In this document: positions 4,169-46,050 of the stretch, in pieces
How positions within the stretch are numbered: position 1 is the first letter of the stretch
How the letters are laid out: each line of letters begins with the position of its first letter
Source of the DNA: Symbiodinium sp. CCMP2592
Lineage: Eukaryota; Sar; Dinophyceae; Suessiales; Symbiodiniaceae
Assembly: GCA_905221615.1 (NCBI GenBank)
Contig: CAJNDT010002768.1
Coordinates: 654,094-718,093 of the forward strand
DNA: 64,000 nt
Reading direction: 5' to 3'
The notes under the pieces: generated by a model
What the model saw: only the letters and a program-made list of their open reading frames with translations
Database searches by the model: none
What the model was told of the DNA's origin: nothing
Program-made: the position numbers and the translations under genes

Positions 4169-4374
4169 ACAGCAGAAGCCCAAAAGTTGGAAACCTCATA
4201 ACCTCAATCCTTAAGACTAGCGGTTGATGATATAAATCCTGCATTACCCATAACAGGAATATACCATAATTCCCGTAGTTTAGGGCCCTTGAGGTCATGC
4301 AGGATTTTTATCATCAACTGTATTTGGCCTTAATCCGGTTTCCAACTTTATAGGGTTTACTGTAAAGCCAAAAG
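4169..4374. repeat. MITE-like family F unit split by a nested family A unit
   Basis: The left half begins ACAGCAGAAGCCCAAAAGTT and the right half ends with an inverted counterpart (CCAACTTTATAGGGTTTACT). Between them, at 4222-4318, sits a complete family A unit. The outer arms pair only if the inner unit is removed, so family A inserted into family F here. The opposite nesting is seen at 27272-27474. Confidence 0.65.
4222..4318. repeat. MITE-like inverted repeat, family A (nested)
   Basis: Complete unit with GGTTGATGATATAAATCC at the left and an inverted GGATTTTTATCATCAAC end at the right. Confidence 0.75.
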
Positions 4375-4434: not shown

Positions 4435-4550
4435 AAGCTGGTTTAGGGTTTAAGTTAAGCTGGTTTGGGAGTTTAGGGTTTAAGTTAAGCTGGTTTAGGA
4501 GATTAGGGTTTAAGGCTTCGGGTTTAGGGCATAAGGTTTAGGGTTTAGGG
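4435..4550 (+). repeat. telomere-like cluster at the LINE 3' flank
   Basis: Three short repeats of GTTTAGGGTTTAAGTTAAGC-type sequence followed by degenerate TTTAGGG words, running directly into the T-run at 4551-4558. Confidence 0.75.
4508..4549. repeat. left copy of putative ~42-bp target-site duplication
   Basis: This 42-bp stretch aligns without gaps to 12821-12862 with six mismatches by my count (about 86% identity). Both contain the non-consensus tract GGCTTCGGGTTT. The two copies bracket the poly(A) end and the 5' end of the 8.27-kb insertion. Telomere-like words resemble each other by chance, so the shared non-consensus tract is the stronger evidence. Confidence 0.6.
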
Positions 4551-4726
4551 TTTTTTTTGAGCTCCTTTTTATGTCTGCCCAACTGGTTGAGCTAGCATAA
4601 GGCCATCGGCCAGGAGGTGGAGCGGCGAGCAACTTACGCGCTCGCCACTCAGAACATGCCACCCTCATTGCTCACCCGCATCGATCAGCATACAACCATC
4701 TGTGCTTGTGCTAGCCCTGTACCCTG

Positions 4727-7620
4727 TCAGTCACCATTATCTGAAGACGGCGCCGAGTGGGCACCCTCCTCCTCCGCATTGGTCCCGTGTAGCTGGTGGA
4801 ACACAGCTCCATCAAAGTACGCGAGACGTTGTACTTGAAGAGTGTGGAGGAATTCATGCCCATATTGTGCTGCCACCTCCTCAGAGCTAATCAGACCTTG
4901 CTCCCACCTGGTGTAGATCAAGTCCAGGGCAGCCAACGGAGGGTCCAATTGGCCCCCTCCACTGGCCAACACGGTGTGGGTGTCATCGAACTCCGTGGCA
5001 GCAACCTCTGACATGAGCGTGGGCTGTCCAGGCGGAACAGAAGGTTCACCCGGGACTCCTGCATCACCTGGGTCCACAGCCGATATCGTCGACAGGTCTG
5101 GCCCCGGTACGGGAAGTGTAGATGGTGTGGCCGGTGACTGTTCCACAAGTGCCAGGCTGAGCACCAGTGTCCCTGTCCCCGTCTCGTCCAGAGGCACATG
5201 TATGGAGCTCGAAGTTCCAGGCTCACCTTCGTTGCCCGTTTTGGTCACCACCTGCAGCACGCCTCGGGACCGTTTCGCTGGCCTCGAGAGTTCAGCAGCC
5301 ATGACCCATTCCTCCCACTCCCTGTAGGTGCTGGCCCTGTGCTCTTCGTAGATTCTTTCCATCTCCCGGTTAAACTCAGCCTCCCTTTGTTCGTGTGCGG
5401 CTTGTTCTCGTTCTCGTTGCAGGCGGTCCGCCTCAGCTTCGGCTGCCTCCGCAGCCTGGCCAAGTTCAGTATCCGCGGGGCTGTGGTCATGGCGAGGAGG
5501 GCCATTGACCGGCTCAGGCACCGGCGGGCCTCGGATAATCCCGTCATTGACCATGAGGGTCGGCCCTTCATCATCAGTGATGTCCTCAGGAATAGGTTTT
5601 GGGAACAGCATTGCGGCTGGGTCTTCATTCGGAACAGCTGCACCTGCCGCCAAGAGGGAGCCGCTGGAGATTGGCAGGTGCGGTTCCAGTTTTGCCCACC
5701 ATTGCAGGGCCACGTAGTGCAGCAGACCGCATCATCATCCTGTCCCTCAAATTCAGCCGTGTCGGCCATCGCTGCACTGAGCATCGCCACCAGTTCGCCA
5801 GCCCGACCAGTGGCATGCCCAAGCAAGTAACCCGCGGCGTGGTTGGTGCATCTGTGGTGCACACGCCGCTGCAGCCACCGTATGTTCGCCCGCAGGGCCC
5901 CTTTCGACATAGCACCAAAGGCTTGCCGGAGTTCGCGAAGAACTCCATACCACGATGATGACATGCCTGTTTGCATCATCCCCGCCTCATCATCCTCTTC
6001 CTCCGGTTCGACTTCCACTTCAATAGTTTCCGTCGCTCTGTTACGGCTTCTGGAGGCAAGGCGAATCGCGTCCTGAAGGATACTCCCAATGCTGGCCATG
6101 AGTTGTTGGATCATACTGGTCAGGGCTAATGCCGTAGTTAGCTGGTCACTCGGGGAGAGGTCCATGAAGTTGTCGAGGATGCGGTGCTCAATGTCCCGCG
6201 GCAGGAGCCTTGCCGGTGTTTCATCCAGGTCCATCACATTCAGCCAAATCAACCAGTTGGTCACGGCCTCTTGCATCGTCAAAGGCGCCGGCGGCGACGG
6301 TCCCGTGGCCTCAGCATGGTTGCTCGTTGGAGGTCTCCCGGAAGCAGAGGCGGTGGCAGTCGCACCAACCTCGGGGGAAGTCGGAGGCTGTCCAGGCCGC
6401 TTCTTTGGAGCGGGCCGACCAGAACCAGTTGCCCCAGTGGTGGGGCCACCTGTGCCTGTTGCGGTGGATCTCCTTCGTCGAGGTCCGGTCCAGGCCGAGA
6501 GGTTGCATGTCTCGGTCGTGACCCTGATCGAGCTTGGGGCTGACGGTCTCGGTCTTCTGCGACGGCTCGGGCTCTTTAGCCATCGTTTGTTAATCTTTCG
6601 GCTCACCAGGCTGACGACGTCCGAGCTGGAGGTCGCTGTGAGGTCCCTCATCCCGTCATCCATGTTGCCACTCTCGGTGTCATTGAGGTTGTGTGTGAGC
6701 TCGCCGGGTTGGAGGGGCCGGCTGAACAAGGCGAAGAGTTTTTCTTCAGCTGTGACTGCCCAAGCATCAAACCCTATCCCTGCGATCTCTTCGTTCATGG
6801 GTGAGTCGTGATCTTCTTGTCGTGGTAGTCCATCAACCAGGTGGAGAACCTCCGCAGTGGCCCCGATGTAGTCCAAGAAGCCCGTCGCTGGATCCGTGCC
6901 AGCAGATTCCTGACCAGCAAGGTCCCATCCGTCCTGCAGCCATTCCTCATAAAGTGGTCTCCACTGCTGCATACGGTCTTGAGAGGAAAGGCGGGTCCCA
7001 GCTGGCAGCATCCTTTGCAGACATGGTGTCCATTGACGAAGGTGGTGGAACCGAGGCAGATCCTCCCTGGCCATGTCAGGGTTGGGCTCCAGGTAATCCG
7101 GGAAGCTCCCCCCAGTCGAGAGGTGTACCCGGTGCTTTCCGGGAAGTGTGTCTCCATGAAGTCAACCAAGGCGGCCTCCTCCATGTAAACCACCCAGAGT
7201 TTCTCTGCCTCAGTAAATGGGCCAAGGTTGTCCGTGGAGCTGAGTGCGCCGACTTCGTAGGCCACTGGCAAAGGTCCCGTAGCCGGCATCCATCCTGGAT
7301 TGAGCGATTGTCCGGGCCGCTTGGATGAGGGCCGCGGCGTCAGAGCCATCATTCATAAGCTCTTGGAGTTTTTCAATGGCCCTTAACATCCAGCTCGGCC
7401 TCCAGTCGTCGAAGGCATCAAGTGGTTGTGCGAATGCGGGGAGGAGCACGAAGAACAAGAAGGGGAGATACGGCATCAGGAAAAGAAGAGGAGGTCGGCC
7501 AGCTCGGTGTCGTCGATTTCGGCATCCGGTCGGTTCACGAAGGAGGGCCGGAGCCGCCATGTTGGAGGTCATCACGAAAACTCCAACGAAAGACAATGTC
7601 CGAGGTGCGGTTCGGGCCAC
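4727..7620 (-). pseudogene. ORF region downstream of the LINE reverse transcriptase, several frames
   Basis: Coding potential runs through four overlapping minus-strand frames: 7620-7210, 7352-6795, 7074-5245 and 5713-4727, with frame changes near 7.3, 7.1 and 5.7 kb. The order of features is: a hydrophobic stretch near the start, an FDDWRPSW motif, an FPESTGYTSRLGG-like segment, a Pro/Thr/Arg-rich low-complexity middle, an acidic patch (EVEVEPEEEDDE), then a charged helix (EAEADRLQREREQAAHEQRE) leading into ERIYEEHRASTYREWEEWVM. From memory, this last signature recurs in dinoflagellate retrotransposon proteins. The function is unknown; no protease, RNase H or zinc knuckle could be identified. 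It may be a third ORF of this LINE or belong to an adjoining element. The shared poly(A) 3' of it favours the same element. Confidence 0.55.
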
Positions 7621-7679
7621 GAACTACGGACAGCGCTCGTCCATTTGCAATGTCATTCAGCGTGTCCCTTGCCCTGACC

Positions 7680-9532
7680 CTAACCCCAGGCAGTGTTAGC
7701 AGACGAGGTCAGCGCGAACCTTAACCCTCGACATCCAGAATGCTGAGCTGAAACCCTGAGCACCACGGTAATTAAGTCTTCCTGTCGGATCCAAGCTTTG
7801 CCGAGTTCCTTCCAACCCTTTCTGTCATGCGTGTGTTGTCTCCAGGGCCCCCCACACGCTTCGTCCATCCGCATCTCCAGCAGCGTGAGTCGGGGGTAGA
7901 ACTGGCCAGGGTGCCTCACACCACAAGGGTGGCTCTGTTGTTGTCTCCACCAGCTGAGGGTTCTGAAATCTTCGAAGAGGGAACTGATTGGTGGGTGTGC
8001 ATGCAATAGCCCTCTGACCCTGTGCCCTGCGTAGTTCCACCATTTCTCTAACCAGCTGGTGCTCCATCTTCGGACATTGGAGTTGTTAAGTGCCGCCCTA
8101 GAAGATCGAACAAGCCGTCTCCGAAATTCCAGCCAGCTTTCAGACTCCCTCTTCCCCAACTTCAGCAACCACCCCATAAGCATATTCTGGAAAGTGTTGA
8201 CCAACTTAAGGCTGTTGCATTCCGGGGGGAAGGCAGCAATGCACCACAATGCCGTGTTGGAGACAACCTTGTCCATCAACCTAGTTCGGGCAGCAACCGG
8301 TGCCTGGCAGCGAAGGAGGTGCTTGATGCTCCAGAATTTGGCTCTGGCCCTCGCAAGGAGGGGCTGTATCAGTTCAGCCGTTGAAGCCCCAAACCTGAAT
8401 TTGATCCCCATGACTTCCAAGTCGGGAAGCGGTTCGAGTCGGGCCCCGTCAAGTACCATAGCGGATTCTCCTGTTGCCCACGGTGAACAGCACAACCGAC
8501 ATTTACCCATGTTGAGCTCCAGTCCGTAGCCTCTAAGGGTCCTGGCAAACTCCTGTAGTCGACGACCAACTTCGGTGCAGCCCCAACCCCACAAGACCCC
8601 GTCGTCCATGAAAAGAAGTTCCTCGTGCAAGAGCTCAGGGAACAGTTTAACCCGCCGTTGCCAACCACAATCGCGAGCAGTATCAATCAACGCCACATCC
8701 ATCAGGAAACTGAAAAGGATGGGTGATTCGATTGCTCCCTGCTTAATGCCGGATTTCATCACGAATGAACTGGTGCCCCAGGCTGATTGTAAGGTGGCCT
8801 CGGTGTCAACGAGGAGTGCTCGGACTGCTCGGATGGCTCTGAATTCGATGGTGTCCCCTAGTCGCGAAACAAGCCTCGTGAGCAACTTCTCGCGGTTTAC
8901 TGTGTCAAAAGCTTTGCTGACATCTATCTTGACCGCGACCAGCCCCCTACGCCACTCCTGCTCCAAGTGGAACACGCGCCCCAAGGTGTACATGACATCG
9001 GATGGTTGGCGCTGCCTGCCGGCGCATTGAGCTGGGCTCCTGTGATCCAGCAACCCTATGACCCTGTTCGTAATCAGTCTGGCGAAAAGCTTGGAGGTGG
9101 AGCACCCCAACGCAATGGGACGAACTTCTTTTAGGGCCCCACCGGACACCCTACTTTGGGTAGAAGTATCAGCAAGGGCTGGTTCCAGGCTGGCGGCACC
9201 ACCTGGCGGACAAGGACCCCGTTGAGGAATTCAAGTAGATGTTGCTGCCCTCCATCGACCGTGACCAAGGCCCTCAGAAATTCCGTAGAAGTCAAGTCCT
9301 TCCCTACCGACTTCCCAGTCTTCAGTTGACCAAGTGCTATCGTAAGCTCCTCAGCAGTGAAGGCCCGGAAGGAACCTTGTAGAGGCTCGATGGGAGACAA
9401 CCCTGACCCTTCTCCCTGATAAATCGCCGAGAGGTGGTCGTGCATGACATCGTGTGGATCACGTGTTTGAGCTTCAGCGAAACCCAGCTCCCACCCTGTA
9501 TTGCATTGCCTGCTGCCCTGTAGGCCTGCCAA
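7680..9532 (-). pseudogene. LINE reverse transcriptase domain
   Basis: The frame at 9532-9131 has the N-terminal part (FTAEELTIALGQLKTGKS, then WNQPLLILLPKV). The frame at 9149-7680 has the rest: EVRPIALGCSTSKLFAR, the palm motif VAVKIDVSKAFDTV, SGIKQGAIESPILFSFLMD, and the catalytic FMDDGVLWG box (about 8586-8612), then LELNMGKCRL and a C-terminal Trp-rich segment. These are the standard LINE reverse transcriptase motifs, with both catalytic aspartates of the xxDD box present. The frame changes near 9.15 kb. It would copy LINE RNA at a nicked target. The class is clear; the clade is not assigned. Confidence 0.85.
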
Positions 9533-10697
9533 TCCCCTTCAAGCGCACGTTGAAGTCGCTGGGTTTCCCAATCCCGCCTGGCTCGCCGTCGCCCTGCAAG
9601 CGCTGCTTTCCAAGATTCCCTGGATTTGGTGAGCTTTGCCCTACGCAAGAGTTGCTTGACTTCCGGTGGGTCACGATAAGCACGGCTAGGGCGGGGCTGA
9701 GTGCAGGATCTGGCTAACTTCTCAAGCTCAGCCTGATCGAGATGTGTGACCCTTTCAATCCCTCCTTTCCACACTCTGGGGCCTGTTGCATGTCTCGTGA
9801 AACCCTTAGAAACCCTGATCTTGAACTTACCATGGAGGAGCTCATGGTCCGTGCCGGAGACGTAGCAGGAAACTGAAACCCTTTGTGTTGCGAACAAATC
9901 AATCTGGTGTCCCTGCCGATCAGCTTGCCTGGGCCGGCTCGTCGGTAGGTGCCGGTGTTGCGGAATCGGCTCCGCTGGGAGCAAGCCTCGTTCCTCGAGC
10001 GAACTGAGCAGGAGGGTCGACTTGCCACAGCGGCTGACAGCCGCGACTTGGTGCCCTTCACGCGTGTCCCAACAAAAGGCAGCGTTAGCATCCCCCTGAA
10101 CGACGACTGGTAGACTGTCACTCGGCTTTTTCTGGAGAAACCCTTCAAGTTCACTTGCATACTCCAACTGCGTAACCCCTGGAGTGAAATGGAAGCTCCC
10201 AACCCAAAGTTCCGACGAGCTTCGAAGGTGCTTGACTTTGAACCACACTCCTTTTCCCGCTGCTCGACGACTCGTGACCGTCCATGCCACGGGTCAAAGA
10301 CCAACCCATCCCCTCTCCACTGCTGCTTGCTGCGATGAGAGACTTCCTGCAACCGACCTTGTGGTGAAACCGACCATCCGAGCTTTCTGCGCGAGAGTTC
10401 TTGGATCAAAAAGAGGTCCTCAGTGTGGACCTTCCTGCCGGCGTGAGCAGAGAGTGCCTCCCCTAAACAATCAAGTGGTGCACCCTCAATGCTCCAGCCA
10501 AAAATGTTGAGTTCGAGAAAGCCCGACGGATCATCTTGATCCCGAGGGCCGCTGTCTCGAGGCAGACGATTTGTAGGTAGCGTGACTAAGTCAGGCTTGC
10601 CGAGTCGGAGTGGCGAAGGAGGCTGCACAAACCCTACCCCACCCCCATCATCTGAAGCATCGAATTCCCGAGCAAGCTTGGCGTGCTCGAATTCCAT
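9337..10697 (-). pseudogene. LINE AP-like endonuclease (EEP family) domain
   Basis: The frame at 10697-9714 carries the N-terminal part: LNIFGWSIEGAPLD and LFLIQELSRRK (metal-binding Glu) up to GDGLVFDPW. The frame at 10290-9337 continues from there with VGSFHFTPG, VVQGDANAAFCWD (about 10067-10107), a GHQIDLFAT segment and GTDHELLHG (SDH-type motif, about 9831-9857), then an Arg-rich linker to the reverse transcriptase. The frame switch is close to 10.29 kb and a second one lies near 9.5 kb. The motif order is that of apurinic-endonuclease-like domains in non-LTR retrotransposons, which nick the target DNA. It is non-functional as read because of the breaks. Confidence 0.8.
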
Positions 10698-10721
10698 TTC
10701 TCGGATTGCCTGCTTGAGGGG

Positions 10722-10907
10722 TCACCGCTTGGTGTCCTCCAAAGCCCTCTGCAAGTCGTCGACCGAGAGCTCCGTCTCCATCGCCAGCTTCTGCAGGTCA
10801 ACCCAGGCCCTGTTGTTGCCTTTCAAGTTCCAGACAATCTTGCGGTCTTCGGTGTCCGAGTCAACATCCCTGGTAGCACTTGCCACGAGACTGTTCCCCA
10901 ACCACAC
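10722..10907 (-). pseudogene. LINE pre-endonuclease segment, possible coiled coil
   Basis: A helical, charged reading frame (RAWVDLQKLAMETELSVDDL) ends at a TGA at 10722-10724. The same frame then continues into the endonuclease region at 10697, so a single stop codon separates them. I do not recognise a named domain. It probably represents the 5' coding part of the LINE retained after 5' truncation; the boundary with the viral segment lies upstream at about 10.91-10.94 kb. Confidence 0.45.
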
Positions 10908-10929
10908 AGAGCCCGTGGAGTATTCAACG

Positions 10930-12765
10930 TCCAGTTGTATGGAAGGATAGTCTCTGCAATGTCTCGCTCGGTCTTTGCAAAATAGGTCCTCAACATAGGA
11001 TGTTGAATCCCGAAGAGCCTTGCTTCGTGCTTGTATTCAAGCTCCTTCGCACGGAGAAGGATTGAATACCAATCGTCTGGCGCAAGACCTGTTGCGAAAA
11101 GAGTGCAGATGAACTCAGGATCCAGGTCCTCTTCTTTCAACAATTCAAGCACAAGGCGTCGGGTCGAGTCCACGTCGAAAGGTTCAAGTTTCTCTATCCA
11201 CGACTTGTACAATCCTGGAATCTGGCTTGCCGCAACACCTGCACCTTTGTCGTCTAGAAGGACCGACATATCGAACACCGGATCAACATCTATGGTCTTC
11301 CCAAATCTGATTTCAGAGAAAGAGATGTTAGGCAGGCTTCGGAGACTCTCGGGAAAGAACACCGCCTTTGATTCAACCGCTGTTCTGAGTGTAGGATGGA
11401 GGTTGGGGAGACATGCTTCATCGATAACTGGCCAGCATTTGTTTCTTTCGACATATGATTCTATGAATCTTCTGCAAAAACTCCGCAGGTTTTCTTTAGA
11501 GCTGTCTGATCCACAGATCTGCTGGAGTGTTGCTTTTTCAATGTCTTGGACATTGCATCAGACATTCGGATCTCCGCGTGCCTGAAGAGCTTCTCTACAC
11601 CATAGAGCTGCGAGTACTGTTCCACCCGCATGTTCATGGATCTGATCTCCTGGTAAAGAACAGAGAGACATCTCCTTCCTTTCAACTTCTCATCTTCAGC
11701 TGCAAGTATCGGTCCCAACCTCTGGTCCTCGGCATTGAGGACGTCAACAATATCTGCTGTCGCTGACTTGATGACATTCCCTAATTCCTTGATTGTCCTT
11801 GTTGAGTCTTCCGAGGTCAACTTAACAGTGGCCGCATCTCCGAAAGCGGTCACACGTTTGATATGCCGATAAGGAACCGAGTCGGGAAGATGCAACTCCC
11901 TAAACAAGAATTGGTGTAGGATGAATCTTGCCCGGTGTTTTGCAAACCCGTACTCATCCAAAAGTTCGTTGTAGGAAACCAAGTAGACATCGGAACTTTC
12001 ATCTCTCCCTCTGGAAATTTCTTCCGACAACTTTTCTGAGTCATACTCTGAAGCCCAAGACACATGCTCATCGAGCAACTGCATGTTGTCTTCTCTCGAT
12101 ACGTCGACACTCAACGGGCTGTTCTTCCCCAAAGGTCTCAAGAAGCCGTGTTCCCACCCCACGATCAGTTCAAAATCATTCTCTCGTCTCGCTATACGAA
12201 CGATCTTTCTGTCTCGAAGTGGTAGTTTCTTCAAGGACCTCATCTCTTCACAGGCTCGAAAGAAGAAAGCTCTCCAAGAGTCGAGTTTGCAGATGTCGCG
12301 CCATTCTTCTGAACACGCAATACTTGGGACAGCCCCAATCGATGATCTGGTGAGTTCTCTCCCTTGGTCTGACATTACTGAATCAAGGATACTATCGAAC
12401 ACTTTTTGAGAGATCGATTTCCCGTGCTCTTCATCTCTTTGAAAAGCACCTGTATCTGGAGAAGGAGCAAGTACAAAGGCGAGAGATCTCCACCTCAGGC
12501 TTGATGTGTGGAGTCTGACTCCATGACTTGTTTTTGAGACTTTTCCGATAGCTGTCTTCAGGCTTTTCGCCTCTATTTCAAGATGCTTTGGAAGCCTCCG
12601 TTCTTCAACCCCTGCGTCCCTATTCCTCTGGTTCAGGCCCGAAATTTCACCGACGAGAAGACCTTTCTGTTCTTGGTGCAAAGCTGTTTTTAGCTCTTTG
12701 TCCTCTTCGAAGAGATCACGACCTATGTGAACACCTTGACTTTCTTCCTCATCGTCCAAGCTCAT
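10930..12765 (-). pseudogene. endogenous mononegavirus-like L polymerase fragment (N-terminal ~600 residues)
   Basis: From an ATG at 12765 a 434-codon frame runs to 11461. A second frame, open from about 11540, continues to about 10930; the two switch near 11.53 kb at a short homopolymer (plus-strand T-run 11534-11538). The protein opens with an acidic MSLDDEEESQ stretch. Before the break is a FRHAEIR segment that may match the GHP region of L proteins. After it come LRSFCRRFIESYV...CWP, then DDWYSILLRAKELEYK, EARLFG and LRTYFAKTERDIAE. The last cluster matches the motif F region of negative-strand RNA virus L proteins (KERE...RLF...R.YF..TE). It falls roughly 580 codons from the start, where L proteins have it. 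Similarity ends just after this block, before the polymerase palm (motifs A-C), so the enzyme core is absent. The assignment rests on motif recall; a divergent unrelated protein is possible. Confidence 0.62.
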
Positions 12766-12820
12766 TCTCTCTATAGATTCTTCATCCCTCTTCCTTCGTA
12801 GGGGGATACTGATAGAAGAT
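12766..12820 (-). other. leader of the composite insertion
   Basis: About 55 nt lie between the inferred 5' insertion boundary and the ATG of the L-like frame. It is A/G-rich on the minus strand and could be the 5' untranslated part of the viral mRNA. No dinoflagellate spliced-leader remnant (GCTCAAG end) was seen. Confidence 0.35.
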
Positions 12821-12862
12821 GTTTAGGGCTTCGGGTTTCAGGTTTAAGGTTTAGGGCTTAGG
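12821..12862. repeat. right copy of putative ~42-bp target-site duplication
   Basis: Gapless partner of 4508-4549, starting GTTTAGGGCTTCGGGTTT. See that entry. Confidence 0.6.
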
Positions 12863-12939
12863 ACCAAGGCTTTGAACGCTGAACCCCCAACCACCCAGTC
12901 CCAGAAGGGACCTCTTCTGTAGTATAGTACCCTAAATAC

Positions 12940-13041
12940 GGTTGATGATAAAAACCCTGCATCACCCATAATAGGGAATATACCATAATTCCCATATTTA
13001 GTTTAGGGTCCTTAAGGTACTGCAGGATTTTTATCATCAAC
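12940..13041. repeat. MITE-like inverted repeat, family A
   Basis: Complete unit; left end GGTTGATGATAAAAACCC, right end inverted AGGATTTTTATCATCAAC. Confidence 0.75.
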
Positions 13042-14111
13042 AGTAGTAGGATCCGGATAGAGCCCTGGTATAGTAGTACCCTAACTAGTAGGATCCTAAC
13101 AAAGTACCCTAATATAGGATCCTAATATAGGACCTTAATGTGGTGCCCTCAGTAGAAGGATCCTACCGCCAGCCACTTGGAACTGTCTGGTGATTGGTAC
13201 GGGATCTGGGAATGGATCCCTATAGAATAATAGTGTCGTAATCCATGCCCCCATTCCCTACTAAGAACCAGACAGACTTGGAAACCAAATGTTCAAAATC
13301 CCAAATCTGACATGGACCAAATCGGACAAGGTTAGGGTTTAGGGGTTTAGGGGGTTTGGGGTTTAGTGGGTGCAAGTGAGCAGATAGTGGTCCGGAAGAT
13401 TCTAGTCTCAATGGTGTTTGGGACATGCACCTGAACTACGTACCTCGGAACTTAGACCTTCAGGGTCGAAAGCAGCACCTATATTGTCAGCCGTTTGGTG
13501 CCACACCTTCCAATCCCTGATATGGTTTAAGGCATATTCCTTGAAATACGGAATTTTGGAATGTCTGGGGTGCTCGGGCCAGAAAATCCTAAAGGATACA
13601 TTCGAAGAACCATTCCTGGCCCACCGCCCGAAAACCCTAAAGCACTCCGCTCTACATGCATTGGCATTAGTACTAGTATCAGTATTAGTCTTAGTATTAG
13701 AACTGACCTCCAAATGTAGAACTTGTCTTTGGATACCGACTCTACCCGTATGTGAGGATCCTAGGATCTACCCCCCTCCTTCCCCCACTAGGCCACTGAA
13801 ATACTCTAGAGAACCTAGGCCCTAAGCCGAACATCACAGAGTCGGCACAGCATGGGGATCTTCCATCTCCTGCCTGCCGTGCGGACGCATCGGGGCTTTG
13901 CAGTTCGGGGCGGATATAGGGTTGATGGTTCAGGATGCTGCAGTCTTGGGTTTCGGGTTAGGAGCTAAAGGCTAAAGTTAAACGAACTGTTGGTTTAGGG
14001 TTTCGAGTTGAGGGTTACTTTACACGACCATAAACTGCTTTTTGGTAGGTTCTTGTTATAAAACCTGCTATGAAATTTACAGGGGCCCTATCCAACAAGT
14101 AGGTCCTGGTA

Positions 14112-14244: not shown

Positions 14245-15477
14245 TTAAACCCTAAACGCCATAGACCCCTTTAAGGAACCCTATAGATCCCTTTAAAGAG
14301 CCCTTTAAGGACCCTTACTAAGTCCCATGATTCCTCAAGTATGGCAGGTTTAGAGTTGAGGTTCGGAATGAAAAGACCAGCTCTTGCCTCTCTGCGGTGT
14401 CGCAGATGGTGCCTCGAGCCACAACGGAAACACCTCCGGTGCCAGGCTCCTATACCCTAACCCCTAAACCCTAAAACAACCCTTAACCCTCGTGATCATG
14501 GTTTCTGGAGCATTCGTGAGCCTTCGACTTCGTCTTTTGAGATGAACTAGAGGTTCGTTTTGGGATTGCGTCGATGACAATTGTGGTCCGCTTCGTGGTC
14601 AGAGGGTGAAGGCTTTATTTAGGGTTTAGGGCACAGGGATTTGCGGATTTGGAGTATGGTTTTTTGTTGTGAAGGCCCATTTTCCCACCCTGCTACAGTC
14701 GGAATACCTAGGATTTAGAGTTTCGGTCTTAAGGTTCAGGGATTTAGAGGTTTAGGGGCCTAGGGTTTCTGTGGACTGAGGGTTTGTTAAGAAGGCATGT
14801 TGCCTGTGCTTCGGATGGATGTGTGTGAAGACCTTTACACACTTCGTTAGGGGGGGGTCGACAGATGTTTTAGGTGTGTGTCATGTATCATGGGTGACAT
14901 AGAGGTAGATGAGCACGTTTCGTTGCACTGGGGGTTTTCCTTTAGTAAGCTGCATGATCTGTACTGATGTAAACTCATATTCCACCTCAGCCAGCGAGTA
15001 CAGACCCCTCGTTTCCACAGGAAAATTTCAGTTTAGGGTTTTAGGGTTTAGGGTTTAGGGTTTTTGTGTCTGAAACGGCAGTCTGTGAGTGGTGCTATGC
15101 ATAATCTCTGAACGGGCCTCAGGATTTTTTAGGGCATCTAAGGTTTAGGGCTCCAAGGAATAACCACACACTGTTCCGGAGCATCCTCCTAACTGAATTG
15201 CCCGAATCAAAATTTCGAGCAAAGGAAAAGCCAAGATAGGGGACTCGCAACTAAACAACTAAACCCTAAATTCCTTCATCCTCTCTACAAGATCCCCTTG
15301 TTGCAGCCCATAGTCGCAGGGTTGCGATCATCTCCCGCGTCACCGTCCAGGGGGCATCGAGCAGCACATCGTCAACGTAGCGGCAGCCGAGAACCTTCAA
15401 CTTTCGTGGGTGTCTAGCTGAGTCTAGCACTTGTATGGGGGTGCTGGTACAGGTCCTAGCGTATGCGTTTCGGGGTT

Positions 15478-15589
15478 CTACCTATAGTCTCCACTGCAGT
15501 TCCTTTATGGGTTACGCTATAGCATCCTTATTCCTAATTATGTACTTGGTTAAACCAACAAAAGGAACTACAATGGACACTATAGGTAG
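15478..15589. repeat. MITE-like inverted repeat, family C
   Basis: Ends CTACCTATAGTCTCCACTGC and inverted CAATGGACACTATAGGTAG, about 112 bp. Better matched arms occur in the copy at 19421-19536. Duplicate at 42468-42579. Confidence 0.75.
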
Positions 15590-15660
15590 ATTAAGAACTC
15601 ATGGGGAGACGCTGAGGTGAGGGATTCATGACCTCATGTCTGAGCAACAAGAATTGATAT

Positions 15661-15755
15661 TTTCCGAACATTCGGGGTACCTTATTTGGGGGTCCTTATA
15701 ACAAGGATCCTGCTATTTAAGGTGCTATATCAGGGCCCCCTATTTTCGGAAGCCC
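15661..15755. repeat. MITE-like inverted repeat, family B
   Basis: TTTCCGAACATTCGGGGTAC at the left, CCCTATTTTCGGAAGCCCC at the right, with the family core AAGGATCCTGCTATTTAAGG. Duplicate at 42651-42745. Confidence 0.7.
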
Positions 15756-16002
15756 CCCACTGGCTTGAAAGCCAGTGCTTCTGAGCCTCCCGCGCTGAGC
15801 ACACGCTCTTGCATGTTCATGATGGGGTAGTTGGAACCACGATGTTGGTTCACTACCTTGGACTGGGATGGGATGCTGTTAGGCAGTTGAGTACTTACTC
15901 GTTCTTAGCCATCGATTCCCGTAGCAAGGAAAACGGGGCATTTGCAATCAGCAGGCATACACGTGTGTATATAAATGCAGTATATACATATACACATGTA
16001 GA

Positions 16003-16045
16003 TACATACATATGTATATATATATATATATACATATACATGAAC
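16003..16045. repeat. AT-rich (TA)n / (CATA)n low-complexity tract
   Basis: Runs of TATATA and ACATATA, part of a longer CATA-rich stretch from about 15960 to 16095. Duplicate at +26990. Confidence 0.8.
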
Positions 16046-16726
16046 ATGTATAAATGCATCTGTATGCATGTATACTGTATACATATACAGATATGCATCA
16101 CATGCTGCATCGGGTCTACCTAGACCCATGAATTGCCCGTTGTTCAGGACTTTGTGTAACTCAGGAAATCACAATCATCATTCCGGCAGAGAACGCAGAT
16201 GTGTTTTTCGAAAAGGCCTTCAGGTCACGAAGAGCCCATGAAACAGCTAACTGCATTCGTGCAGCAGTCAGCCAACCACGGCTTCGGCCGACATTTCCCA
16301 TCTCAATAGAAGCTTGGCACTTAATTATACAGTATTGGATTTCCTAGCCATGGCACTCAGTCAGGATGGCAGTTGCGGTCGTAGTAGCAACCCGAAGAAA
16401 AGCAGGATCGAACAAGCACCACAGGATTGATCCGGATGGCGAGACTAACGTCCGTCGTGACCCTGGCAAGCTGCTCTTTCGTGACATAACAGTAGCAACA
16501 GCCATGCTGATACAAGACGCAAGGCTAGGACTGGTACATTGGTACCCGAAGTATCAGCATGCAAGAAATGTGTATTGACACTGGGTTTCTGGGTGACCCC
16601 TGAATAATGACGGTAATTACCCAAAAAAGGCTACAATGGTACTACTGAGGAGCCTAAAACAACCGTACAGGAAGACAGACTACCTGCTGACAGCACGTCT
16701 ATGTTTCATAATCGTACATGCCCCTA

Positions 16727-16825
16727 AGGCTCCATGTGCCGATATAGTATATACCTAGGTCTTAAAGTACATATAAGGGGACCCCTTTAAGGCTTCAGCA
16801 TCTACTATAAAGGTACATCGAGCCT
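16727..16825. repeat. MITE-like inverted repeat, family E
   Basis: AGGCTCCATGTGCC at the left and an inverted GGTACATCGAGCCT at the right. Duplicate at 43717-43815. Confidence 0.65.
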
Positions 16826-17159
16826 CAAACCCTAAATCCTAAACCCTTATGATACCCTTTATAGAACCCGTAAAGGAACCCAAAACCCTAATATGGGTGC
16901 ATTGGGCCCAAAGTATATACTATTTGGATACATGGACCCTTAGGGTAATATAGGGGCCTTGATTAGAATAGGGTTTTGGGACCCTTTACACTATGATTAT
17001 AAATAAGGAACCCCAAACATAGTTTTACCTAATTATTAACTATTGATTGAAGATGTTGTACACTTGATCCTTTTCATATTGTATGTTCTACAGTCAGGTT
17101 CAACGTTCCTCAACAGCCGGTCGAGTGGGCCGAGCAGAAATAACTGGCCGCATCTACAC

Positions 17160-17262
17160 GGGAATTTCCGAAAATTAGGGGTGCTGTATTTGGGGTTCGA
17201 ATAATAAGGATCCTACCATTTAGGGCACTCTATTTTTGGGTCCCCTAATTTTCGGAAACCCC
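17160..17262. repeat. MITE-like inverted repeat, family B
   Basis: Well-matched arms: GGAATTTCCGAAAATTAGGG and inverted CCCTAATTTTCGGAAACCCC. Duplicate at 44150-44252. Confidence 0.8.
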
Positions 17263-17455
17263 TACACTGTATCGGGCAAGCCAAACAGTCGATACGGGAA
17301 GACCAAGACACCCTCATACGAAAATGGCTTCTTTATCTACGAGGCTTGTGAAAATTTGGTGAGACTACTCTATGGGTTGCATGCGCGACTGGAGAACTTT
17401 ACATCAGATTGATGGGCAGCCTTATCGCATAAACATGATGTTTCCTCGGATACCC

Positions 17456-17557
17456 AGTAACCTAAGAATAAAAAGGCCTCTCTTTTTGGTATTGGGTAAC
17501 TTTATAATTTATAAGGAACCTAGGACTACAAAAAGGGAATAAGGGTACTACTGGAGA
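17456..17557. repeat. interspersed ~100-bp repeat, family K
   Basis: Shares GTAACCTAAGAATAAAAAGG and AACCTAGGACTACAAAAAGG with 60674-60773, with a short internal length difference. The ends are weakly inverted (CCCAGTA / TACTACTGG), so this may be another MITE family. Duplicate at 44446-44547. Confidence 0.6.
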
Positions 17558-17861
17558 TCCTAGTTTCGCTATATCCAGTACGTCTTGAGATGGTGGCAAC
17601 AGGCAATAAAAGAGGCCAGCGTATGCCATGTGTGCTCAGGAAAGCTGGAAGGTACAGCTTCTAAAATACGCGTCGCGAGTGACGCATGGCTGGCGAACCT
17701 TTGGCAGCGGGCCTGAACTTCGCATAAAAGCTGGAAATGCTGAGTTTCCTGGTGCAAAAGAATTCTTAAGTACAGTGGGAGAAAAACCATAAGCCTATAC
17801 CCTAACAACAGATGCAAACCCGAAGCCCAAGTACTAAAGCTTGATCCACAAACGTGAAACG

Positions 17862-19060
<1,199 letters not shown>

Positions 19061-19420
19061 GAACACACGATGTGGATCTTCGTAAACACGTGGATTTCGT
19101 CATAGCACTTCAGCACAAAGCTCTCTGTGTGAATCCTGATTTGAGGGATAATCGAGTTGTTAAACCAGCTTTCCAGTCTCCCGGTACCTCAGCCCACCAC
19201 AGACTACGTCTGTTCGGGTCCTGATGCTAGTAAAGATGTCACAGGGGCCAAGAAGACTGGGCAGCTCAAGGTGGGGTTTACAGTCTTTTGAGGGCCCTCA
19301 ACGCTGCATCAGGTTCGCGATCTCGCTGCACGGGAACGGTGGGCCCTGAAGGCCTTGTTCTGACCACTCGTGGGCCCGTGGAAGACCGGGTCCCCCTGCA
19401 CTTAAAAGGGAAAAGGCTTC

Positions 19421-19536
19421 CTACCTATAGTCTCCATTGTAGTTCCTTTTTCTGGTTAACCAGTTTTATGGTTAGGATCCGATAATAGAGTTTTTGGTTA
19501 ACCAAAAAACGGAACTACAATGGAGACTATAGGTAG
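19421..19536. repeat. MITE-like inverted repeat, family C
   Basis: Near-perfect arms: CTACCTATAGTCTCCATTGT and inverted ACAATGGAGACTATAGGTAG, 116 bp, with an inner TTGGTTAACC inverted pair. Duplicate at 46411-46526. Confidence 0.85.
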
Positions 19537-19650
19537 AGCTCATCAACAAAATGCTGGGTTTAGCGGTTCATGGATTAACCGGGAAGTGGGCCCCACTCCC
19601 GAAGCAGCCACGAAGGCAAAGGCCCCTACTTACCTCTTGATGAGAAACGG

Positions 19651-19752
19651 TAGTTTCCGAAAATAGGGGTACCTTATTTTGGGGGTCCTTATATAATAAG
19701 GGTCCTACTATTTCGGATACTTTATTAGGGTCCCCTATTGTCGGAAAGTCCC
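19651..19752. repeat. MITE-like inverted repeat, family B
   Basis: TAGTTTCCGAAAATAGGGGT at the left, CCCCTATTGTCGGAAAGTCC at the right. Duplicate at 46641-46742. Confidence 0.8.
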
Positions 19753-21087
19753 AAATAGCAGTGCCCTTTAACGGCTACTTGGGGGGTCCTGGTGGGGGTT
19801 TAGGAGTGAGCATCGAAGTCCACAAGTTCAGGCGTTTAGGGTTGAGTTTTTTTCTGTAAGTGCAGGGTTGAGGGTTCAGGGTTTAAGGGTTCACGCGTTT
19901 AGGGGTTTGCTTTTTTGGGGGGTCTAGGGTTCGGGGATTTGACGGTTTAGGGTGCATCCGGAGTTCCTGGGTCAACTTGAGCAGGCCAATTTGTACAAGA
20001 AGGGCAAGGGCATCGGTCTGTCTCCCGGTGAGCCCAGTACTCCGTCGTAACGTAATTGAGGGTTTAGGGAGTAATATTCCTCAGATTCCTGCACAGGATC
20101 TCGTTCTGATATGAAGCACATTCCTCGGTTCAGGCGTGTTGAGCTCACCGGGTTGTCGATTGCGGCCCTCACGGTGCTTCTTGTCAGGTTCGTCGGGAAC
20201 AAGACCATTTGTGCTCATGGTGAGACAGCTTCTGCTTCAAAACAATCGAACTTTCTGCAGCTCCGGGCCCATGTGCCAGGGTTTGGGAGCCCTATATAGA
20301 TAAAAACGCTTGAACTCCTGAACCTCGACTTCTAATTTCAGGAACCGATCTTATGTATCTGAGCGCTACACCCCGAAGTCCGAGAGCCTACTTGTAGCAG
20401 TGAATGTTTGGTAAGGATATCGCTGACTGATTATTTCAATGAAAGAACGACCATCATCAACGTCAAACCACAACGCCCGAAACCACCTAAGGCCTAGACC
20501 TCGCCTACCCGATACTCTAAACCGCTAAACTCCCTCGCACAGCTGAGACGCTAGAGCCTGAACCCCCCAAAGCCGGAAGCTAGAAACCTCACTGTAAAAG
20601 AACCCTTCACAAGAACCCCTTGTAGGAACTCTAAATCCTAAATCCTAAACCACCTTTTAGAGGAATCCCTTGCAAGCACCTAATCCAGCTTACATAGTCG
20701 GCACCTTATACAAGAACCCCTTACAGCAAACCTTAAGCCCTACACCTCAAAAAGGGACCTTCTGGGAACAAAGGAACCCCACCGTTTAGGGTACCCTTGT
20801 ACTTGCAGTAACCTTGAGAAGTCCTCTAGGAGACTTAACCCGTAAACCCACAAAGGGATCCTTCACTGAAACCTTACAGGAATTTTTAGACATCCCAGAA
20901 CCCTGAATTGAGCAATATGCCGTTTCGGAGTCACAGGGCCGGGCCCTAGACCCTAACCTAAGCCCGAAACCCTAAATCCTAAACCCCTAAACCCCTAAAT
21001 CCCTGAACCCCTTCCTTTAAGGGTTCCTTTAAGGGCTCCTAGTGTTCCTAGGGCTCTAAACCCTAAGCCGCTCAGGACCCTTCTTAA

Positions 21088-21186
21088 AGGCTCATGGGAC
21101 TTAGTAAGTAAGGTTATAAGTAGGTTAAGCCCACTTAGGGGACTTATAACCCCAATTATAACCTACTTACTAAGTCCCATGATCCT
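21088..21186. repeat. MITE-like inverted repeat, family D
   Basis: GGCTCATGGGACTTAGTAAG and inverted CTTACTAAGTCCCATGATCC. Duplicate at 48078-48176. Confidence 0.8.
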
Positions 21187-21386
21187 CTAAGTTGCCTAAA
21201 CTACCCCTTATAGAACCCCTATATAGATCCCTTAAAGGAGCTCTTTTAAAGCAACCTACTTACTAAGTTCCATGATCCTTTAAGTAGACTCAGGGCTCCG
21301 AGCCAAGATCGGTAGTCGGAGCACGACAAGTCGGACACGAGCCAGCGCAGCCCGTCGGGGATACTAACCTGTGGCTTAGAATGCCT

Positions 21387-21503
21387 TACTTACAGGATCA
21401 TGGGGCTTAGTAAGTAGGTTATAATTGGGCTTATAAGTCCCCTAGGTGGGGTTTTTTCCTAATTATAACCTACTTATAACCTACTTACTAAGTCCCATGA
21501 GCC
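21387..21503. repeat. MITE-like inverted repeat, family D
   Basis: TTACTTACAGGATCATGGGG and inverted AGTCCCATGAGCCTGCAAGT. Duplicate at 48377-48493. Confidence 0.8.
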
Positions 21504-23078
21504 TGCAAGTAGGGGTTATGGTTTATGATTCAGGGTTTAGGATTTCGAGTTTAGGGTTTAGGGCTCGTGGGAGGGCATAGGGAGAAGAACCTGGGGCTTA
21601 GGAAAGCTCTTGGAATGGGCTTTGTAGGGGTTTGTCGGGTTTTCGTCAGGGCTTTCAGGGATGAGCACCCCAGACCCTAAACCCTAAACCGGGTTGCAGA
21701 GGGGTACCGGGGAGTTGACACAGGCTTTAATGAGGTCTTACAGCGTCCGGCGGTTCGCGCTGGAGGCCAAAGCTTAGTCTTTGAATACAAAGGCCTGGAA
21801 AATAAGAATGGGGTTTTCAGCATTTTACACTATAACCCTAAGGCTCATAATGGCCCAAAAGCCTTACATAATACGGTCTTTAGGCCCAAAAGCCTCAACA
21901 TATGAGTCCTTAGAGCCTTAGGGTAACTATAATAAGGAACCCTAGCAATAATATTGGTCATATTCTAGGCCCTGACAAGATGTCGGGGGCTTCGCGCTCG
22001 GGTTTCGGGCATCGTTTGGGGTTTGGTAAGGCGGGTAGACGGGTAAGGTTTAGAAATTTTTGGCTCAGGTTTCAGGGTATAGGGCCTACTTCACGGCATG
22101 GGGCTCAGAGTATTGTCAGGCGTGTGTGATTTAAGATGACTTCAACATAGGGCTCTACCCTTTCGGCTTGTAGAAAGAAATCCCACCACCCAAACCGTAG
22201 CCTAACCATCTAAACAAGAAACATGCCGAAAAAGAAAACCTGAGCACCAGGGAAAGCAACTGACTGAACCCGCTCCAAGATGCCCTTGTCCTTTTAGAAA
22301 TGATAGACAGAGCCCTATACCTATATCCCTTAGTAGGAATTATTTAAGAAGGTCTACTAGCCGGTCTGTTTATTCTTTTTGGAGAACCATGAAAAAGGAC
22401 AAGGCTGCTCCAAGAAGCCCTTGATGGGTTTGGGGTATGCCATAGAGCTCCTGATACTTTGGGACGCTCAAGACTTGGACATCTGAGGTCCCAGAGAGAC
22501 CCAGGTGCTTGTCTTCAGCAACGATAAAACCTGAACCCGAAACCCTAAACAAACCCTGAATCCCAAACCCTTACCCCCAAACCGTAAAGGTAGGTTTAGG
22601 AATTAAATCTCTGCCAGCAACCATCGGGCGATGCAGTCGTCGTGGAAGGCATGGCCACATGGCAGTACCTCTCTTTACAGCAGCTTGGTGGCGAAGGCGC
22701 GGGGTCAGGGGTCATCACAGGCTCGGAAGCCTAGAGGCCAAAGCAAAAAGCTTAGCGTTCTGCTATTGGGAAAGCAAGAACCTAAAGCATAAACCGTAAT
22801 TAAACCTTAAACCCTAAACCCTAGCCCCCAAACCCTAATCCCTGAACCCTATACTCTCATCCCTAAGCCCTAAACAGCAGCGAGGGACGCAGACTTGGGT
22901 GTCCGGCTGGAAGTCCTCCAAGCAACAGATGCACGTCTTCTGAGACGATGAACCGATAGAAGCTGCTCTCCAGGCTTCCTAGGCTTCCATAAGGCAGTAG
23001 CTTAAGGTGTGTAGGGTTTAAAGGTTTAGGGTTTGAGGGCTTTAGGATTTAGGGAGGTTTTTGATGGTTTTGATATGA

Positions 23079-23178
23079 GGAATTTCCGAAAGTTAGGGGT
23101 ACCTCAATATGGGGTCCTTGTAATCAGGATCCTACTATTTAGGGTACTATATTGGGGTCCAGTTTTTTTGGAAACACC
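23079..23178. repeat. MITE-like inverted repeat, family B
   Basis: GGAATTTCCGAAAGTTAGGG at the left; the right arm is degraded (TTTTTTTGGAAACACC). The core AGGATCCTACTATTTAGGGT is intact. Duplicate at 50069-50168. Confidence 0.7.
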
Positions 23179-23309
23179 CTCCTAGGCTTCCGTCAGGCAG
23201 TAGCTTAGGGTGTGCAGGGTTTAAGGGTTTAGGGTTGATAGTACGTTTTGGGTACTCCCCGTTAACTCTCCAACCCTCAAACCTCAGGGACTTAAACCGA
23301 AGCTCCTTA

Positions 23310-23409
23310 AGGCTCCATGTACCCATATAGTATATACTTAGGCCTTAAAGTACCTACATAGCTACCCCTTTCAGGCTTAAGTATCTACTATAAAGGTACA
23401 TGGAGCCTT
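23310..23409. repeat. MITE-like inverted repeat, family E
   Basis: AGGCTCCATGTACCCATATA at the left and inverted ATAAAGGTACATGGAGCCTT at the right. Duplicate at 50300-50399. Confidence 0.8.
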
Positions 23410-23787
23410 AAACCCTAAACCCTAAACCCTTATGATACCCTTTATAGAACCCTTAGAGGAACCCTAAACCCTAAACCCTTAAAGTACATGGAGCCTGTGG
23501 GGCTGTATGTATCGGAGGTGCTGGCTTTGCCGCAGCCCAGTCGATGGTCAGCTGGCCTTCTTCCAGGTGAACCCTGCGAAACTGAAGGCGAGCTGTGCCA
23601 AGCTTATCAAACCTCAGTCTCTCAGAGGGGCAGTATGGGTTTAGGGCTTAGGGAATAGGGTTTAGGGTATCAAACCACCCTAATTTTCGGAAAACTCCCA
23701 CATTGCTCTTGGGAGTTTCGGGAGCCTGATTCGGCTTAGGCTTTCGGGCTGAAAGCTCAGTCCTTCTCTTGTAGGGACCTACAATCC

Positions 23788-23894
23788 ATAGGGGCCTAAA
23801 TAATTACTTATGCTATTATTTTGGGGGTATCCTTATCATAATTTAAAGTCTAAGATCCCCCAAAAACTTATGCTAATCATTCAGGCCCCTATAG
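23788..23894. repeat. MITE-like inverted repeat, family H
   Basis: Ends ATAGGGGCCTAAATAATTAC and inverted TAATCATTCAGGCCCCTATA. Duplicate at 50778-50884. Confidence 0.75.
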
Positions 23895-24708
23895 TAATCA
23901 GAATTGGGTTCCTTGTAAAGGGATCTATAAGGGTTACTATAGGGGTTACTATAAGGGGTATCATGGGGATCTAATATAGCGGCCTAGATAGTTGCAATGG
24001 GGTCTGGGGGCCCATTACACTTTAATTTTTAATCAGGAACACCAGAAAAATAGCATTGGTACTTATTCAAGCCCCTATGATGACCTCTATGTTGGATACC
24101 TGGCTCAGGGTTTAAGGCTTCGGGACTTGGGATTTGGGGTGTAACGTCGTGAACAGCGCTCAACCCGGGTACTAAAGCTGACAGGATTTGCTTCTGATCT
24201 TATGCCAAGAACAGCAGATGAAACGACACATCCGAAACAAAGCGAGCCTTTGCCGAGGTCCTCATAGTGATGACCCTACTGAATGCGGACTGTTCTTTGA
24301 GCATCCCAGTTCAAGGCGGCGGTCTTTCTTCACTCACGGAACGTGGAAACCCTATCTCTCCGATAGCCACAGCCATCCACTGCTGACAGGTGCTTCTATG
24401 TTTGTCAGCATACTTGCAATGCAACAAAACAGTGCGAACTTCTCAGTATGCCCCCGTCCCCAAGCCCTAAACTCTACACCTTGAAGGGCCTGAACCCGGG
24501 ACCCGACTTTTAGCACAGCGACCGGGTTTGGGCCAGCAAGCAACTGCGGTATCTTTCTGACGATTCTTCCTTAGCTGAAAACAAGGCCCGAAAACGAGAG
24601 TCGGTCGTGAGGCTTTCCTAAAGGCTCCACTTTCTGGGCACATGGAGCCTTAGGGATTGAGGGTTTAACGAGTCTCGGCTATGGCGATTGGTGAAAATCC
24701 TCACATGG

Positions 24709-24811
24709 TAGTTTCCGAAAATAGGGGACTCTAACATATAGTATCCGAAATAGTTGGATCCTTATTATCAGGACCCCAAAATAAGGTATCCCCTGATTTT
24801 CCGAAACTCCC
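24709..24811. repeat. MITE-like inverted repeat, family B, reverse orientation
   Basis: TAGTTTCCGAAAATAGGGGA and inverted CCCCTGATTTTCCGAAACTC. The core reads as the reverse complement of the other copies. Duplicate at 51699-51801. Confidence 0.75.
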
Positions 24812-24895
24812 ATATCCAAACTGGCATAGAGCAGGGGGATGCTGGGGATACAGGCAGACTCAAAAGTAGCGAATCAAAGTCTTGCTGTACCCTGG

Positions 24896-24973
24896 GGCTC
24901 CATAGTAGTTCCTTTTGGAGGCTTCATATTTAAATCCTATAGAGTGATCCCAAAAAGGAACTACTACGGAGCC
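24896..24973. repeat. short inverted repeat related to family C
   Basis: GGCTCCATAGTAGTTCCTTT and inverted AAAGGAACTACTACGGAGCC. Duplicate at 51886-51963. Confidence 0.75.
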
Positions 24974-25421
24974 TATGTGTAAGCTGTAAACGCTCAGCGT
25001 CCTTCCTTGCGCCTCTCCTTTCGCAGGTCTTTTGGATCCAAAGCATGCCTTTGTTGTCCCGGGGCTTACGGCTTATGGTTTGAATGAACCAACAGAGGCT
25101 TAACCTGTTATTGTCGTTGGTCTATATACGTAAGTTAAGTCTAAGAAGATTACCGGTCAACTACCAAAGATGCACTTCAACTCGGTGATCAGCATCCCGG
25201 TGAGCAAGCCGGAGATCAGAAAATGCACCCAGCCTCGGCAGTGACTCTGGTCATGCGCCATACGCTTGACACCCTCTTTATTGAATTTGTCGAGGCATTT
25301 TGTACTGCTCTCCCCTCATGGTCTCGTTCTTGGGTTGCTGTTGCCGTGGGGGGTTGCCGGCTTGCCTGGGCTGGTGCGGAAGGACACAGCAACAGCAACA
25401 TAAAACTTATGCGGTACTTAC

Positions 25422-25450
25422 ATGAGTGAGTGAGTGAGTGAGTGAGCGAG
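25422..25450. repeat. (GTGA)n microsatellite
   Basis: About six GTGA units passing into GCGA variants. Duplicate at 52412-52440. Confidence 0.9.
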
Positions 25451-26513
25451 CGACTAGCTGCACGAGGTGGTGCGCGCAGCAGCCATGCCTAAGGCGCCGT
25501 TCCCTCCCGGCTTCTCAGGGGGCTCCGCAAGCGTCATTGCCCCCTCCACTTGGAGTTCCCGCTGGCGAACGCCCCAACCCCAGAAACAACGTTATGAGGT
25601 CAGCAAAGACGGCCCAGTTTGGCAAGAGGGCATGCCAACAGTACTTACATGCATGCGTGCTTACATAAATACAAACATACACATCCACGCCTGCCCGTGT
25701 TCGCACATGCTGGGGCATACAGACATACCGACTGAACGAGGAATCGAGAGTTCGAAAGCCTGAACTCTATTATAAGTGGCTAAGGCGAAACGTGGACAGT
25801 ATCAAGGGCTGAACAGCCTGAAAGGAGCTGGGAATGGCAGACCGCAAAACTCGACAGCAGTCGAACATCTGCGACCCTAAAACAACATCGAACATCAGAT
25901 CCTAGACTACAAGCAAGCATAGTATAGTTACTTTAACAGTAACCCGTGTTACTAAGTCCCATGATCCTCCGTGTAGGGAGGCAGTGGGGTGTAGGAACTT
26001 CTAAACCCACGGGTCGTAAAAGTCCAGGAGCCAGCTCGAAAGCAGGACTTCCTCAATCGGAGTCCCACGCCCACAAAACTCCAAGGAAGGGGATTGGGGT
26101 TTAGGGGGTTTAGGATTTAGGGTTTGGGATTTAGGGTTTAGGGGGTTTGGGGTTAGGGTTTAGGGTTGCGGGTGCAAAACTCCAAACTCCCAACCCCAGG
26201 CTGTGCAATGAAGATCCCTCTGGTGTTCGAAGCCCTAAAGCCCTGATACACTCTAGGGCTTATAAACTCCAACCATCAAGCCTCAAGCCCTAAACCCCCA
26301 ACTGAGCCTTACACCCCAAAGCCCTAAGCCCCTCAACCTCGAATCCCGAAGCCCTGAACCCCCAAACACCAAACCCCGAAAGCCAAAAGCCTGGCAGCGG
26401 TTTGGGTCTCCGTCGTCAGCCTCTAAGCCAATCCTGGTGTTGATCACCAGCGCGCTGAAGGTGCCAATTACACCGACACCGATGAGGTATCCGATCATGG
26501 CTTCCGATGGTTT

Positions 26514-26631
26514 ACAGTAGAAGCTCGAAAGTTGGAAACCGGATTAAGGCCCAACAGTGCTGGGATTCGCTATGCATTTACTCTTAAATGATCGAGGCTA
26601 TTGGGTGTCCAACTTTTGGGCTTCTACTGTA
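26514..26631. repeat. MITE-like inverted repeat, family F
   Basis: ACAGTAGAAGCTCGAAAGTT and inverted AACTTTTGGGCTTCTACTGT, 118 bp. Duplicate at 53504-53621. Confidence 0.8.
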
Positions 26632-27222: not shown

Positions 27223-27271
27223 CCGAATAGCCGGCTTATCGCCGATTCTGAGAAGTCTCGCTTGGGGATAC

Positions 27272-44851: not shown

Positions 44852-46050
<1,199 letters not shown>

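What the first reader, a model, noticed from the sequence alone, without database searches (positions are those of the whole stretch)
4508..12862. A viral L-polymerase fragment and a LINE inserted together as one chimeric retrocopy
Seen: an L-like frame, LINE endonuclease, reverse transcriptase and a further ORF region lie in one orientation. They end in A8 and are bracketed by an imperfect 42-bp direct repeat (six mismatches) at 4508-4549 and 12821-12862. The interior lacks the telomere-like words and MITEs that fill both flanks. Known: LINE reverse transcriptases can switch templates and make chimeric retrocopies with cellular or viral RNAs. Inferred: a viral L mRNA (leader, ATG, about 600 codons) was joined to the 5' end of a LINE cDNA during insertion. 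I do not know of a described case in dinoflagellates.
Basis: partly seen in the sequence, partly recalled or inferred. Interest (0 to 1): 0.92.

Follow-up and report, generated by a model that had tools for sequence, protein, structure and literature searches.

The report
Virus polymerase piece fused to retrotransposon
In what is most likely the DNA of a symbiotic alga of the genus Symbiodinium, the front part of a negative-strand RNA virus polymerase gene lies directly against a LINE-type jumping element in the same direction, as if both had been copied into the genome in one step; that would be an unusually direct trace of how RNA viruses become genome fossils, but the single step is not proven.

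Summary
The observed parts are real. On the minus strand, 12765-10937 encodes about 580 codons resembling the front part of a Mononegavirales L polymerase (PF00946, E 6e-14 for the second of two pieces; the first piece matches only weakly). At about 10919-10937 it meets a LINE-type element (ORF2 with reverse transcriptase, then ORF3) that ends in A8 at 4558-4551. The end of L homology, a GC change-point and a change of codon phase agree on one abrupt join. The 42-bp direct repeat exists but is weak proof of a target-site duplication: each copy is 6 mismatches from perfect (TTTAGGG)6, and neutral decay to 6/42 would put about 19 stops into 2392 codons where none are seen. One interrupted in-phase telomere-like tract with an exact 8-bp CCCTAAAC at both edges fits better. 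The simplest reading is one chimeric retrocopy made by template switching. A pre-joined transcript, two insertions, or an assembly or DNA-level join remain open, because the search of the host genome did not complete. Rhabdovirus-like fossils, and LINEs near RNA-virus fossils, are already in print for Symbiodiniaceae; my searches listed no direct L/LINE junction.

The parts
12821..12862 (-). 5' flank of the unit: degenerate telomere-like tract, one copy of the 42-bp repeat; ends in CCCTAAAC directly before the unit
12766..12820 (-). 55 bases before the L start codon, possibly viral leader
   Evidence: read; identity as leader is inferred, no relict spliced leader (best 7 mismatches of 21 anywhere in the window)
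11461..12765 (-). L-like piece 1, 434 codons from ATG; weak PF00946 match near its end (profile 314-382)
   Evidence: E 0.055 whole, 0.011 for the last 179 aa, below the curated cut-off
10937..11362 (-). L-like piece 2, PF00946 profile 427-558
   Evidence: E 6.3e-14, 51 bits, cut-off 27
10786..10996 (-). join of L to LINE; best GC change-point 10919, end of L homology 10937
   Evidence: span is the union of the four support intervals
10740..10919 (-). open frame of high GC3, probably the end of LINE ORF1 (5'-truncated)
   Evidence: homology test not significant
7718..10697 (-). LINE ORF2 (endonuclease-like region, reverse transcriptase), broken by four frame changes
4727..7563 (-). ORF3, family of P0033-P0037, function unknown
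   Evidence: membership of this LINE inferred from order, GC content and the A-run
4551..4558 (-). A8 at the 3' end of the unit
4508..4550 (-). 3' flank of the unit: degenerate telomere-like tract, other copy of the 42-bp repeat; begins CCCTAAAC directly after A8

Best explanation
A single chimeric retrocopy. A LINE reverse transcriptase primed at a nick in a degenerate telomere-like tract, copied its own RNA from the A-tail through ORF3, ORF2 and probably the end of ORF1, then switched template to an mRNA of a negative-strand RNA virus at about codon 600 of its L gene and copied that to near its 5' end. Shown here: the parts, their order and shared orientation, an abrupt join, an A-run at the LINE end and none at the join, and telomere-like tract of the same orientation and phase on both sides. 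Inferred: one event, the template switch, a viral mRNA as template, and a short (8-bp) target-site duplication.
For: PF00946 E 6.3e-14 and PDB L proteins for piece 2 (19 of 20 matches at E 10 or less are L constructs; best 8.1e-6). LINE ORF2 with 32 relatives. L homology ends at 10937, GC change-point 10919 in four of four stretches, codon-phase change in the same place. A8. Flanks in one phase, exact CCCTAAAC at both edges. No stop in 2392 codons cut into nine open segments, as for an insertion with few substitutions.
Against: No other copy or empty site seen. The 42-bp repeat and the 8-bp repeat are both easily given by a telomere-like tract. LINE homology at the join is not significant. At least six frameshifts raise doubts on sequence quality. 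Published work calls Symbiodinium LINEs old remnants (PMC8045281, passages; PMC10235124 section 9), which sits badly with a recent insertion. The ORF3 part is not shown to belong to this LINE.
Confidence: 0.5

Rival explanations
1. Pre-joined source: an older L fossil already lay against a truncated LINE elsewhere; the pair was transcribed as one RNA and retrocopied here (5' transduction).
For: Explains order, orientation, one A-run and the interrupted tract equally well.
Against: Needs an earlier joining event; no L-like relative among 5316 scored candidates of similar length, though unannotated DNA copies could not be searched.
Confidence: 0.15
2. Two insertions: an L fossil first, then a 5'-truncated LINE inserted against or into it, the rest of L being lost.
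For: Nothing excludes it; LINEs are abundant in Symbiodinium (PMC8045281, passages).
Against: Needs exact abutment; no L beyond the LINE in 10 of 11 minus-strand flank ORFs of 65 codons or more (plus strand not tested); telomere-like tract in one phase on both outer sides.
Confidence: 0.15
3. Assembly error, or a DNA-level rearrangement that joined an L fossil to a LINE.
For: Frameshifts without stops and a 17-kb, 99.65% identical duplication elsewhere in the window call for caution.
Against: Both outer edges lie in telomere-like tract of one orientation and phase; by my estimate about 1 in 14 by chance.
Confidence: 0.15

Closest known systems
RNA-virus EVEs in Symbiodiniaceae with LINEs nearby (Veglia et al. 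2023, PMC10235124; sections 9 and 10 read)
   Same: Non-retroviral RNA-virus gene fragments in Symbiodinium; LINE-mediated retroposition proposed; Rhabdoviridae-like EVEs named in one sentence
   Different: Their study virus is +ssRNA (dinoRNAV); LINEs lie near (95 bp, <300 bp, 17 kb), no direct virus/LINE junction is described in those sections
LINE-1 chimeric retrocopies (e.g. L1 joined to U6 snRNA) (recalled; PMC4476161 seen in a listing only)
   Same: A LINE cDNA whose 5' part comes from another RNA after template switching
   Different: Cellular RNA partner and mammalian L1; here a viral mRNA-like partner and a dinoflagellate LINE
LCMV joined to an IAP retroelement in mouse cells (recalled; not read)
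   Same: A retroelement reverse transcriptase joins a negative-strand RNA virus sequence to its own cDNA
   Different: LTR element and infection of mice or cells there; LINE and a genomic locus here

Membership tests
Endogenous Mononegavirales L fragment | Significant match to L polymerase | tested here: met
   Piece 2: PF00946 E 6.3e-14, PDB L E 8.1e-6. Piece 1 only weak, with a TPR_NAA35 match as good (E 0.010 against 0.011)
Endogenous Mononegavirales L fragment | Lies in host DNA | tested here: inconclusive
   Joined to a LINE and telomere-like flanks; read support not available
LINE (non-LTR retrotransposon) | Reverse transcriptase of LINE type | tested here: met
   RVT_1 E 8.2e-17; 32 relatives
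LINE (non-LTR retrotransposon) | Apurinic-type endonuclease upstream of RT | tested here: inconclusive
   Window frames have no Pfam endonuclease match; relatives P0027 and P0001 match PF14529 below cut-off (E 0.0042 and 0.048)
LINE (non-LTR retrotransposon) | 3' A-tail and target-site duplication | tested here: inconclusive
   A8 present; 8-bp and 42-bp repeats are not diagnostic in this tract
Chimeric LINE retrocopy (template switch) | Both parts in one orientation with an abrupt join at the 5' end of the LINE part | tested here: met
Chimeric LINE retrocopy (template switch) | One target-site duplication around the whole unit and none at the join | tested here: inconclusive
Chimeric LINE retrocopy (template switch) | Added part absent from other copies of the LINE | tested here: inconclusive
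   No L relative among scored proteins; DNA copies could not be searched (genome search did not complete)

The most novel reading that the evidence does not exclude
A one-step chimeric retrocopy in which a dinoflagellate LINE switched from its own RNA to the L mRNA of a mononegavirus, leaving a recent genomic record that negative-strand RNA viruses infect Symbiodinium and that its LINEs endogenise them.
Probability: 0.45. Interest if true: 0.75.

Novelty: new variant of a known kind. Interest (0 to 1): 0.55.

Why it matters
How non-retroviral RNA viruses enter genomes is mostly argued from retroelements that lie nearby. A direct virus/LINE junction would name the agent, in coral symbionts whose negative-strand viruses are barely known, and it gives a bait with which to look for a living relative.

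Tried and rejected
The 42-bp repeat as a neutrally decayed target-site duplication: not the best reading. Simulated substitution at 7.1% per site gives a mean of 18.9 stops and 0 of 100 runs with none in 2392 codons; at 1%, 5 of 100 runs with none; at 0.5%, 29 of 100; none are seen. Caveats: the nine segments are open frames cut at frame changes, which favours a count of zero; about 33 codons between the L pieces and the first part of ORF3 (7563-7075) were left out and may hold stops; the tract itself may mutate faster.

No relict spliced leader before L: best 7 mismatches of 21 anywhere in the window. No second copy of the unit in the window by blastn. No relatives of the L pieces, RT or ORF3 in IMG/VR, nor of the RT in GTDB contigs, at tool sensitivity. 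AlphaFold models of the two L pieces without alignment had mean pLDDT 34.6 and 33.7 and were discarded; no fold search was made. Probable ORF1 tail against 37 proteins: best P0031, equalled by 6 of 300 shuffles, not significant over 37. Piece 1 has no PDB match at E 10. NCBIfam gave nothing for the L pieces. Rfam gave nothing in the window.

Full report
Source. ORF3 of the window is 100% identical over residues 1-471 to P0033, named 'Symbiodinium sp. CCMP2592' by its source. PMC8045281 (passages seen) lists CCMP2592 as S. tridacnidorum and speaks of hybrid assemblies from short and long reads. The host is thus inferred.

The L part. On the minus strand an ATG at 12765 opens 434 codons; a second frame, 11362-10937, continues. 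PF00946 (Mononegavirales polymerase) matches profile positions 314-382 at the end of piece 1 (E 0.055 for the whole piece, 0.011 for its last 179 residues, both under the curated cut-off and no better than an unrelated TPR_NAA35 match at 0.010) and 427-558 in piece 2 (51 bits, E 6.3e-14). The two matches lie 44 profile positions and about 140 bases apart, as expected of one gene broken by one frameshift. In the PDB, 19 of 20 matches of piece 2 at E 10 or less are L constructs, the best 6ueb_A at 8.1e-6 and 7yot_A at 1.7e-4. The first ~360 codons match nothing above a cut-off, so their assignment to L rests on position and an open frame. The rest of L was not found in the flanks, but only 10 of 11 minus-strand ORFs of 65 codons or more were tested.

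The LINE part. Thirty-two proteins match the RT frame; the best, P0001, is 79% identical over 76% of it. Mapped back, the set tiles 10679-7718 in changing frames. Three are named as Symbiodinium (P0019, P0021, P0031). ORF3 has five relatives, one of them P0033, probably this locus itself; they tile 7563-4730. Its function is unknown (DUF6822 matches lie below cut-off). No protein seen joins RT and ORF3, so that ORF3 belongs to this LINE is inferred from order, GC content and the A8 that follows.

The join. L homology ends at 10937. A two-segment fit of GC content puts the break at 10919 in each of four stretches tried (support intervals within 10786-10996), and the GC pattern by codon position changes phase in the same place. 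From there an open frame of high GC3 (0.79) ends just before the ORF2 start at 10697; it is probably the end of ORF1, but comparison with 37 proteins gave nothing significant. No A8 run or telomere word lies at the join.

The edges. The 42-bp repeat is as stated: 6 mismatches, each copy the other's best match in 64 kb. Other left/right flank pairs are as close or closer (4 mismatches for 4276/12999, 6 for 781/15689), as expected of shared MITE-like repeats. Each copy is itself 6 mismatches from a perfect (TTTAGGG)6; among telomere-like 42-mers of the window (at most 15 mismatches to the perfect tract, 41000-54750 left out as duplicate) 37 of 449,778 position pairs reach 6 or fewer, so the pair is unusual but not unique. 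A duplication decayed neutrally to this level predicts about 19 stops in the unit; none are seen (caveats under Tried and rejected). I therefore read the flanks as two parts of one older degenerate tract: they share orientation and phase, and an exact CCCTAAAC stands directly before the unit and directly after the A8. That is what an insertion with an 8-bp duplication would leave, though in such a tract it proves little. Lack of telomere words inside the unit agrees, but 34000-41000 lacks them too.

Mechanism. One retrocopy with a template switch explains order, orientation, a single A-run, the abrupt join and the interrupted tract in one event. A pre-joined transcript explains them too but needs an earlier event. 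Two insertions need exact abutment and loss of the rest of L. Mis-assembly is possible, given at least six frameshifts without stops and a 17-kb near-identical duplication. The genome search that could decide did not complete.

Literature. Veglia et al. 2023 (PMC10235124; sections 9 and 10 read; passages) report +ssRNA EVEs in Symbiodiniaceae, LINEs close by, LINE-mediated retroposition as mechanism, and in one sentence Rhabdoviridae-like EVEs; they also describe Symbiodinium LINEs as old, inactive remnants. PMC9927876 (passages) found one negative-sense virus in microalgal transcriptomes, in a diatom culture. Searches for dinoflagellate with Mononegavirales, with negative-strand RNA virus, Symbiodinium with rhabdovirus and EVE, and template switching with retroelements and RNA viruses listed no title or abstract start on a viral-L/LINE junction in a dinoflagellate. 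Most of those papers were seen as listings only, and only open-licence papers are held.

Noticed in passing
14359-31370 and 41349-58373: Direct duplication of about 17 kb at 99.65% identity (37 mismatches, 9 gaps in 17030 bases): a recent segmental duplication or an assembly duplicate.
   Followed up: partly
4727-7563, minus strand: ORF3 family of up to 866 residues (P0033-P0037) without known function, lying after a LINE reverse transcriptase; it may be a third ORF of these LINEs.
   Followed up: partly
about 10291, 9490-9530, 9132, 7778, 5708, and between 11362 and 11461: At least six frame changes in the unit with no stop in the open segments: recent indels or assembly indels.
   Followed up: partly
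17841-19103 and 44831-46093: Long trinucleotide-type simple repeat array with long mechanical ORFs on both strands, in both copies of the duplication.
   Followed up: no
4276-4327 and 12934-13050: MITE-like inverted repeats close outside both edges of the unit.
   Followed up: no
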